Source: an uncultured Lachnospiraceae bacterium (GTDB lineage Bacteria; Bacillota; Clostridia; Lachnospirales; Lachnospiraceae). Taken from it: 64,000 bases of DNA. Of this stretch, positions 24,829 to 25,147 are shown piece by piece. The notes beneath the pieces were generated by a model. The model searched no databases and was not told where the DNA came from. It saw only the letters and a program-made list of their open reading frames with translations. How positions within the stretch are numbered: the first letter of the stretch is position 1; every line of letters begins with the position of its first letter. Made by a program: the position numbers and the translations under genes. The stretch spans positions 308,989 to 372,988 of the forward strand of contig CAMWFQ010000001.1 of NCBI GenBank assembly GCA_947173495.1, read 5' to 3'.

Positions 24829-24987
24829 ACTTACTTTCCCTTTAAACTATCTGTTCTCCCCTCCCGTCACTACGCCCGATAATCCTGTATACAAAATCTA
24901 CATTTTGACTACAAATATACAAATATCCAGGTATTTTTTCCGGCAAAGAAAAATATTCACAAGCGTCAGATCCTATCAATTATTATT

Positions 24988-25048
24988 CAGGGCATGATAA
25001 ATCAGAGCCGGAGTAAATTTTCCTCTGGCTCTGACTTATCATGCCCTG
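24988..25048. terminator. Central hairpin of the invertible segment (26-bp stem with two mismatched/wobble positions)
   Basis: CAGGGCATGATAAATCAGAGCCGGAG...CTCTGGCTCTGACTTATCATGCCCTG. Confidence 0.75.
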
Positions 25049-25064
25049 ATTTCGGAAATAAATA

Positions 25065-25094
25065 TTGTCAGTGGTAAATTTAACGTGATATAAT
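25065..25094 (+). promoter_or_regulatory. Sigma-A promoter inside the invertible segment
   Basis: TTGTCA - 18 bp - TATAAT. Confidence 0.75.
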
Positions 25095-25147
25095 AAGAAA
25101 AATGGTTCAGATAATTACTTTCGCTGTAGTCAAAATGTAGAATCTGT

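What the first reader, a model, noticed from the sequence alone, without database searches (positions are those of the whole stretch)
24897..25141. Invertible promoter switch next to a tyrosine recombinase, controlling a BTAD activator and surface protein
Seen: perfect 17-bp inverted repeats TCTACATTTTGACTACA (24897-24913) and TGTAGTCAAAATGTAGA (25125-25141), 211 bp apart. The right repeat starts 6 bp past the stop codon of a tyrosine recombinase (25148-25993); the left lies about 70 bp upstream of a BTAD/SARP-type activator (start 24828). Between them is TTGTCA-N18-TATAAT on the plus strand (25065-25094), pointing away from the activator. No comparably good promoter faces the activator in this orientation. 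Known: many gut Firmicutes and Bacteroidetes flip promoters between short inverted repeats using neighbouring tyrosine recombinases. Inference: this is a phase-variable ON/OFF switch captured OFF; inversion would aim the promoter at the activator, whose output would include the downstream 1007-aa coiled-coil surface protein. An invertible switch acting on a BTAD regulator rather than directly on a surface gene is the unusual part.
Basis: partly seen in the sequence, partly recalled or inferred. Interest (0 to 1): 0.92.

Follow-up and report, generated by a model that had tools for sequence, protein, structure and literature searches.

The report
Invertible promoter switching a SARP activator
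A gut bacterium of the Lachnospiraceae kind carries a 211-base DNA segment that a neighbouring enzyme can very probably flip, turning on or off a regulator that in turn appears to switch on a large surface protein; the same device, caught in both orientations, recurs in dozens of related genomes.

Summary
It is the only such repeat pair in the window (0.002 expected). Inside, an 11/12 extended -10 promoter faces the recombinase, away from the BTAD gene.

Repeats lie at the same place beside 23/23 assembled related recombinases (and about 42/50 in a second sample). Arms match within a locus, not between loci. Nearly every segment carries the promoter: OFF in most loci, ON in seven. One orthologous pair (L045/L046) shows collinear flanks and an inverted segment with breakpoints in the repeats. 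Contigs end in the segment about ten times more often than expected; five end exactly at a repeat edge.

Added here: the activator folds as an AfsR-like SARP with a degenerate GGDEF-like tail. Upstream of the surface gene is a 12-bp direct-repeat operator, conserved in 7/7 training loci and recovered in five held-out loci. It is unique in this genome. So: switch -> activator -> surface protein.

Inverton regulation of regulators has precedent (C. difficile cmrRST, pdcB). I found no paper linking a SARP/BTAD gene to an inverton. Flipping in this strain is not shown.

The parts
25148..25993 (-). Tyrosine recombinase (281 aa), the proposed invertase
   Evidence: Pfam Phage_integrase E 1.5e-25; catalytic motifs present; homologues at 43-81% identity sit beside the same kind of switch
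25125..25141 (.). Right inverted repeat TGTAGTCAAAATGTAGA, 6 bp past the recombinase stop
   Evidence: only these two copies in the genome
24897..24913 (.). Left inverted repeat TCTACATTTTGACTACA
24914..25124 (.). Invertible segment, 211 bp
   Evidence: similar-sized segments beside related recombinases; inverted between L045 and L046
25065..25094 (+). Extended -10 promoter TTGTCA-N18-TATAAT, facing the recombinase (OFF); inversion aims it at the activator
   Evidence: conserved TTGnnn-N17/18-TGnTATAAT in nearly all related segments of the first set
24987..25049 (.). Long hairpin (31-nt arms, 90%) in the segment; in many relatives T-tailed hairpins point opposite to the promoter (terminator/insulator). 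Here no T-tail, so role inferred
23554..24816 (-). SARP-like activator: winged helix + BTAD + degenerate GGDEF-like C-domain; only BTAD gene in the genome
23477..23512 (-). Predicted activator operator and promoter of the surface gene: ATGAGACAGTTT GCAGGATAGCCC CCTTGT TAGAAT (12-bp direct repeat, then -10)
   Evidence: aligned in 7/7 switch-BTAD loci; recovered in 5 held-out loci; unique in the genome
23443..23491 (-). Terminator-like hairpin CCCCCTTG...CAAGGGGG-TTTTTT overlapping the -10; would stop read-through from the activator gene but not transcripts begun at the operator promoter (inferred; not seen in L041/L043/L044)
   Evidence: sequence; coordinates
20323..23343 (-). Large coiled-coil surface protein (signal-like N-terminus, C-terminal membrane helix), proposed output
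   Evidence: weak match to the SEC10/PgrA domain, below cut-off

Best explanation
A phase-variable two-step switch. The tyrosine recombinase 25148-25993 recombines the two inverted repeats and flips the 211-bp segment. As assembled (OFF), its strong extended -10 promoter fires toward the 3' end of the recombinase gene and the activator is not transcribed from it. After inversion (ON), the promoter reads into the activator gene. The activator, an AfsR-like SARP with a degenerate GGDEF-like tail, binds the 12-bp direct repeat at 23477-23512 and starts transcription of the large surface protein. Shown: repeats, promoter, operator-like element, their conservation, and inversion between related loci. 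Inferred: that this recombinase does it, that it happens in this strain, and that the activator binds this operator.
For: Repeat pair beside 23/23 related recombinases with enough sequence; within-locus arm score 21.0 against 9.6 for arms swapped between loci and about 7.4 for shuffles; 42 of 50 non-masked loci in a second sample. Promoter conserved and found in both orientations: ON in L045, L047, L062, L096 and L263, L273, L289; on the recombinase tree the four ON tips of the first set need four separate changes. L045 vs L046: flanks collinear at 85% and 80%, segment 6911-7189 matches 7191-6914 inverted at 81%. Contig ends within 400 bp past the recombinase stop: 9/30 against 1.0 expected and 9/60 against 0.84 expected, with 2 on the upstream side; G013 C27, C16, C36, C30 end exactly at the inner repeat edge, as does L298. 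Activator fold: AfsR 8k60 E 1.2e-9, EmbR 2ff4, GGDEF 6khu. Operator: 7/7 and 5 held-out loci scoring 23.6-39.4 against at most 6.2 in three positional controls.
Against: No reads; the flip is not seen in this strain. The recombinase-segment link is by position and co-variation, not biochemistry. The two closest homologues (L039, L049) break inside the segment, so no close relative of this locus shows ON; the four window-type BTAD loci with complete segments are all OFF. About 8 of 50 loci in the second sample have no clear repeat. The operator repeat period is 12 bp, not the 11 bp reported for SARPs. One held-out operator locus (L157, 23.6) lies only moderately above the best of its shuffles (16.5).
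Confidence: 0.84

Rival explanations
1. The switch is real but the surface gene is driven mainly by read-through of the ON transcript through the activator gene, the activator serving other targets.
For: All genes lie on one strand with about 210 bp between activator and surface gene; in several relatives the switch sits directly before a surface gene with no regulator.
Against: A conserved direct-repeat operator with a -10 lies in the gap and a terminator-like hairpin precedes the surface gene. The operator is unique in the genome. BTAD/surface pairs exist without a related recombinase nearby (L151, L156-L158).
Confidence: 0.12
2. The switch is locked in this strain: repeats and recombinase are a frozen relic, permanently OFF.
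For: Strong OFF bias among assembled loci; single assembly; outer parts of the two repeats differ here (26 nt at 88%).
Against: The 17-bp core arms are perfect, the recombinase is intact with its catalytic motifs, and the promoter is intact.
Confidence: 0.1
3. The repeats are not recombination sites but a long stem-loop, bidirectional terminator or binding site for something else.
For: A separate hairpin does exist inside the segment (24987-25049).
Against: The arms are 211 bp apart, sequences diverge between loci yet match within each, and the segment is found inverted with breakpoints in the arms.
Confidence: 0.03
4. The recombinase belongs to a mobile element or is a housekeeping Xer enzyme, and the switch beside it is worked by another enzyme.
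For: Best NCBIfam and PDB sequence matches are Xer-type.
Against: All Xer equivalog scores are far below cut-offs; homologues stay beside the switch across Lachnospiraceae and Oscillospiraceae; five other, much more distant recombinase matches (68 bits or less) exist elsewhere in the genome.
Confidence: 0.06

Closest known systems
Clostridia inverton group 139 with invertase group 35 (Microbiome 2025, PMC11892184)
   Same: Inverton beside a tyrosine-type recombinase gene in Clostridia; the example in Clostridium sp. D5 has 26-bp repeats with a 205-bp interior and changes orientation over culture passages.
   Different: Whether this locus carries that group's repeat motif could not be tested (supplement not readable). 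The passages read do not mention BTAD/SARP targets or an activator operator.
cmr and pdcB switches of Clostridioides difficile (PMC8844915, PMC9286219)
   Same: Invertible promoters controlling a regulator (response regulators; c-di-GMP phosphodiesterase) rather than a surface gene.
   Different: Different regulators; here the regulator is a SARP-like activator with its own adjacent target. A recombinase studied in C. difficile phase variation is RecV; its relation to this enzyme was not tested.
fimS/FimB type 1 fimbrial switch of E. coli
   Same: Short invertible promoter element (314 bp) flipped by a tyrosine integrase (abstract of PMC9993118).
   Different: fimS drives the fimbrial operon directly; here a regulator is interposed.
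AfsR/SARP activators of Streptomyces (PMC10936776)
   Same: Winged-helix plus BTAD fold (PDB 8k60, 8hvr); direct-repeat operator whose 3' repeat lies 8 bp from the -10.
   Different: Repeat period 12 bp rather than 11; C-terminal degenerate GGDEF-like domain instead of NOD/TPR; phase-variable; proposed to control a surface protein.

Membership tests
Invertible promoter (inverton) of the tyrosine-recombinase kind | Inverted repeats flanking a short intergenic segment | tested here: met
Invertible promoter (inverton) of the tyrosine-recombinase kind | Outward promoter inside the segment | tested here: met
Invertible promoter (inverton) of the tyrosine-recombinase kind | Adjacent intact tyrosine recombinase | tested here: met
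Invertible promoter (inverton) of the tyrosine-recombinase kind | Both orientations observed among related loci | tested here: met
Invertible promoter (inverton) of the tyrosine-recombinase kind | Both orientations observed in this strain | not testable with these tools
   single assembly, no reads
Invertible promoter (inverton) of the tyrosine-recombinase kind | Inversion depends on the neighbouring recombinase | not testable with these tools
   needs knockout or an in-vitro assay
Inverton group 139 / invertase group 35 | Repeat-motif and invertase cluster membership | not testable with these tools
   motifs and sequences are in supplementary files that could not be opened; only dimensions and class agree
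SARP/AfsR-type activator | N-terminal winged helix followed by BTAD | tested here: met
   Pfam PF03704; Foldseek to AfsR and EmbR; Trans_reg_C only weak by sequence
SARP/AfsR-type activator | Target promoter with direct repeats, 3' repeat 8 bp from the -10 | tested here: met
   exact 7-mer repeats with an 8-bp gap in L040 and L045, one mismatch in L046; degenerate in the window. Position only; binding not tested
SARP/AfsR-type activator | Repeat spacing 11 or 22 bp | tested here: not met
   spacing is 12 bp in all aligned loci
Active diguanylate cyclase (GGDEF) | GG[D/E]EF catalytic motif in the C-terminal domain | tested here: not met
   GNRHF in its place, with R372 and H373 invariant in 36 homologues

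The most novel reading that the evidence does not exclude
The device combines chance and signal: DNA inversion decides whether a cell makes the activator, and the activator's degenerate GGDEF-like domain (or, in relatives L040/L045/L046, a GGDEF gene in the same operon) senses a nucleotide signal before the surface protein is made. In a variant branch the ON operon begins with a recombinase paralogue that has lost its catalytic residues, which could feed back on the switch.
Probability: 0.3. Interest if true: 0.75.

Novelty: new variant of a known kind. Interest (0 to 1): 0.6.

Why it matters
Inverton surveys mostly list switches acting directly on surface or capsule genes. Here a recurrent Lachnospiraceae switch acts through a dedicated SARP-like activator with an identifiable operator, making a compact, testable cascade. 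It extends SARP-type regulation from actinobacterial antibiotic genes to phase-variable surface proteins of gut Clostridia, and it supplies many loci with opposite orientations for reading phase state from public metagenomes.

Tried and rejected
A viral-contig scan for the recombinase found no relative, so no sign of a phage origin. BLAST of the surface protein against the first set of loci gave no match. A T-tailed terminator inside the window's own segment was sought and not found, although relatives have them: 15 of 25 segments have one pointing opposite to the promoter, but 9 of 25 also have one in the same direction, so the insulator idea is only suggestive. Other operators in the own genome within 3 of 30 mismatches: none. 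The strict pattern match for the operator failed on the held-out loci and was replaced by a weight matrix. Papers linking BTAD and invertible promoters or phase variation: none found, in an open-access subset only.

Full report
Observation. The repeats, distances and promoter are exactly as described. The pair is the only perfect inverted repeat of at least 15 nt with a 50-600 bp gap in the window; 0.0017 pairs of 17 nt are expected. The repeat does not occur elsewhere in the 4.58-Mb genome; all other hits have three mismatches, at about the background of the reversed control. The recombinase carries the expected catalytic motifs. The activator start is better placed at 24816 or 24810, and the surface-protein start at 23343.

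Comparative test of the switch. A scan of species genomes for the recombinase gave 24 loci at 48-81% identity, and family searches gave about a hundred more at 43% or above. In all 23 loci with enough assembled sequence (the window included) an inverted repeat pair begins near the recombinase stop and encloses 203-300 bp. The arm sequences drift between loci but match within each: mean score 21.0, against 9.6 for arms swapped between loci and about 7.4 for shuffled sequence. In a second sample of 60 loci, 51 were long enough; 43 passed the threshold, one of them a masked N-run, so 42 of 50 count. Most arms contain an internal near-palindrome such as ACAGAATCTATATTCTGT, as expected for a tyrosine recombinase core site (inference from known architecture).

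Promoter and orientation. Nearly every segment in the first set holds one strong promoter of the form TTGnnn-N17/18-TGnTATAAT. It faces the recombinase in the window and most loci and faces the downstream gene in L045, L047, L062 and L096 (the call for L061 was weak and was treated as OFF). In the second sample the calls were 33 OFF, 3 ON and 7 ambiguous, with weaker promoter matches. On the recombinase tree the four ON tips of the first set require four separate changes. L045 and L046 are orthologous loci (same upstream genes); their flanks align collinearly at 85% and 80% while the segment aligns inverted at 81%, with the turn-over points inside the repeats. That is a natural inversion.

Assembly signature. 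If both orientations coexist in a sample, a short-read assembly should break at the segment. Nine of 30 contigs in the first set end within 400 bp past the recombinase stop (1.0 expected), and nine of 60 in the second (0.84 expected; only two on the upstream side). In genome G013 four contig ends, forming two matching flank pairs, stop at exactly the inner edge of the repeat, and L298 does the same. This is indirect evidence that such switches are mixed in natural populations. It does not concern the window's own assembly, which is continuous.

What it controls. Downstream genes vary: the activator of the window's type (L041, L043, L044, about 65% identity), a GGDEF gene followed by a more distant BTAD gene (L040, L045, L046), large repeat-rich or S-layer-domain surface proteins (L048, L051, L052, L062), or genes with epimerase domains that suggest cell-envelope polysaccharide (L042, L054). 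The predicted activator structure (mean pLDDT 77) matches AfsR in transcription complexes, EmbR, and GGDEF domains. The GGDEF signature is replaced by GNRHF with R and H invariant in 36 homologues. It is the only BTAD gene in the genome.

Activator target. Upstream of the surface gene in all seven switch-BTAD loci first examined lies an aligned block, for example ACGAAAGAGTTT GCGAAAGAGTCC TTTTGC TATACT: two repeats 12 bp apart and a -10, without a recognisable -35. SARP promoters have direct repeats 11 or 22 bp apart with the 3' repeat 8 bp from the -10 (PMC10936776); the gap here is 8 bp in the clear cases. A weight matrix from the seven recovered the element at 23.6-39.4 bits in five loci not used to build it (L151, L152, L156, L157, L158). 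Upstream, coding and reverse-strand controls never exceeded 6.2; the best of 60 shuffles per locus reached 16.5. Four of these five have no related recombinase nearby, so the activator/surface pair exists without the switch and the switch looks like an added layer. In the window's genome the element is unique within 3 mismatches of 30.

Known or new. Invertons worked by tyrosine recombinases are well known, and a Clostridia group of them (group 139 with invertase group 35) has been described, including one that changes orientation in culture (PMC11892184). I could not test whether this locus belongs to that group. Invertons acting on regulators are known in C. difficile. New, as far as the searched open-access library shows, is an inverton acting on a SARP/BTAD activator with a dedicated neighbouring operator, and its recurrence in the family. 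I rate it a new variant of a known kind.

Limits. No read data, no transcription data, and one genome per species. Orientation calls rest on a consensus promoter score. Counts from the two samples may share a few loci.

Noticed in passing
L116 (G013:C16), L117 (G013:C30), L093 (G021:C83), L152 and L190 (G341): The first gene downstream of the switch is a second recombinase-like protein of about 275 aa (27-28% identical to the window's); in the three aligned (L152, L116, L117) the HxxR, H and Y catalytic motifs are replaced. It precedes exopolysaccharide-like operons (L116, L117) or BTAD genes (L152, L190) and could be a regulator of the switch.
   Followed up: partly
L043 7605-8847, L085 (G030:C200), L087 (G029:C108): The BTAD genes appear frameshifted or broken in these relatives, which may mean repeated loss of the activator.
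   Followed up: no
L040 7114-8106, L045 7659-8618: A GGDEF-domain gene (well above the Pfam cut-off) lies between switch and BTAD gene, so these switches would also change a diguanylate-cyclase-like protein.
   Followed up: no
Many loci: Strong OFF bias among assembled genomes (roughly 55 OFF to 7 ON), unexplained: selection, assembly preference or recombinase bias.
   Followed up: no
window 25101 onward, + strand: In the OFF state the promoter would make RNA antisense to the 3' end of the recombinase gene, a possible feedback on the invertase; inference only.
   Followed up: no
window 26150-29497 (-): Two GDSL-type hydrolase genes (26150-26764, 26836-28101) and an MBOAT acyltransferase gene (28121-29497): possibly a cell-envelope acyl-modification cluster next to the switch.
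   Followed up: no
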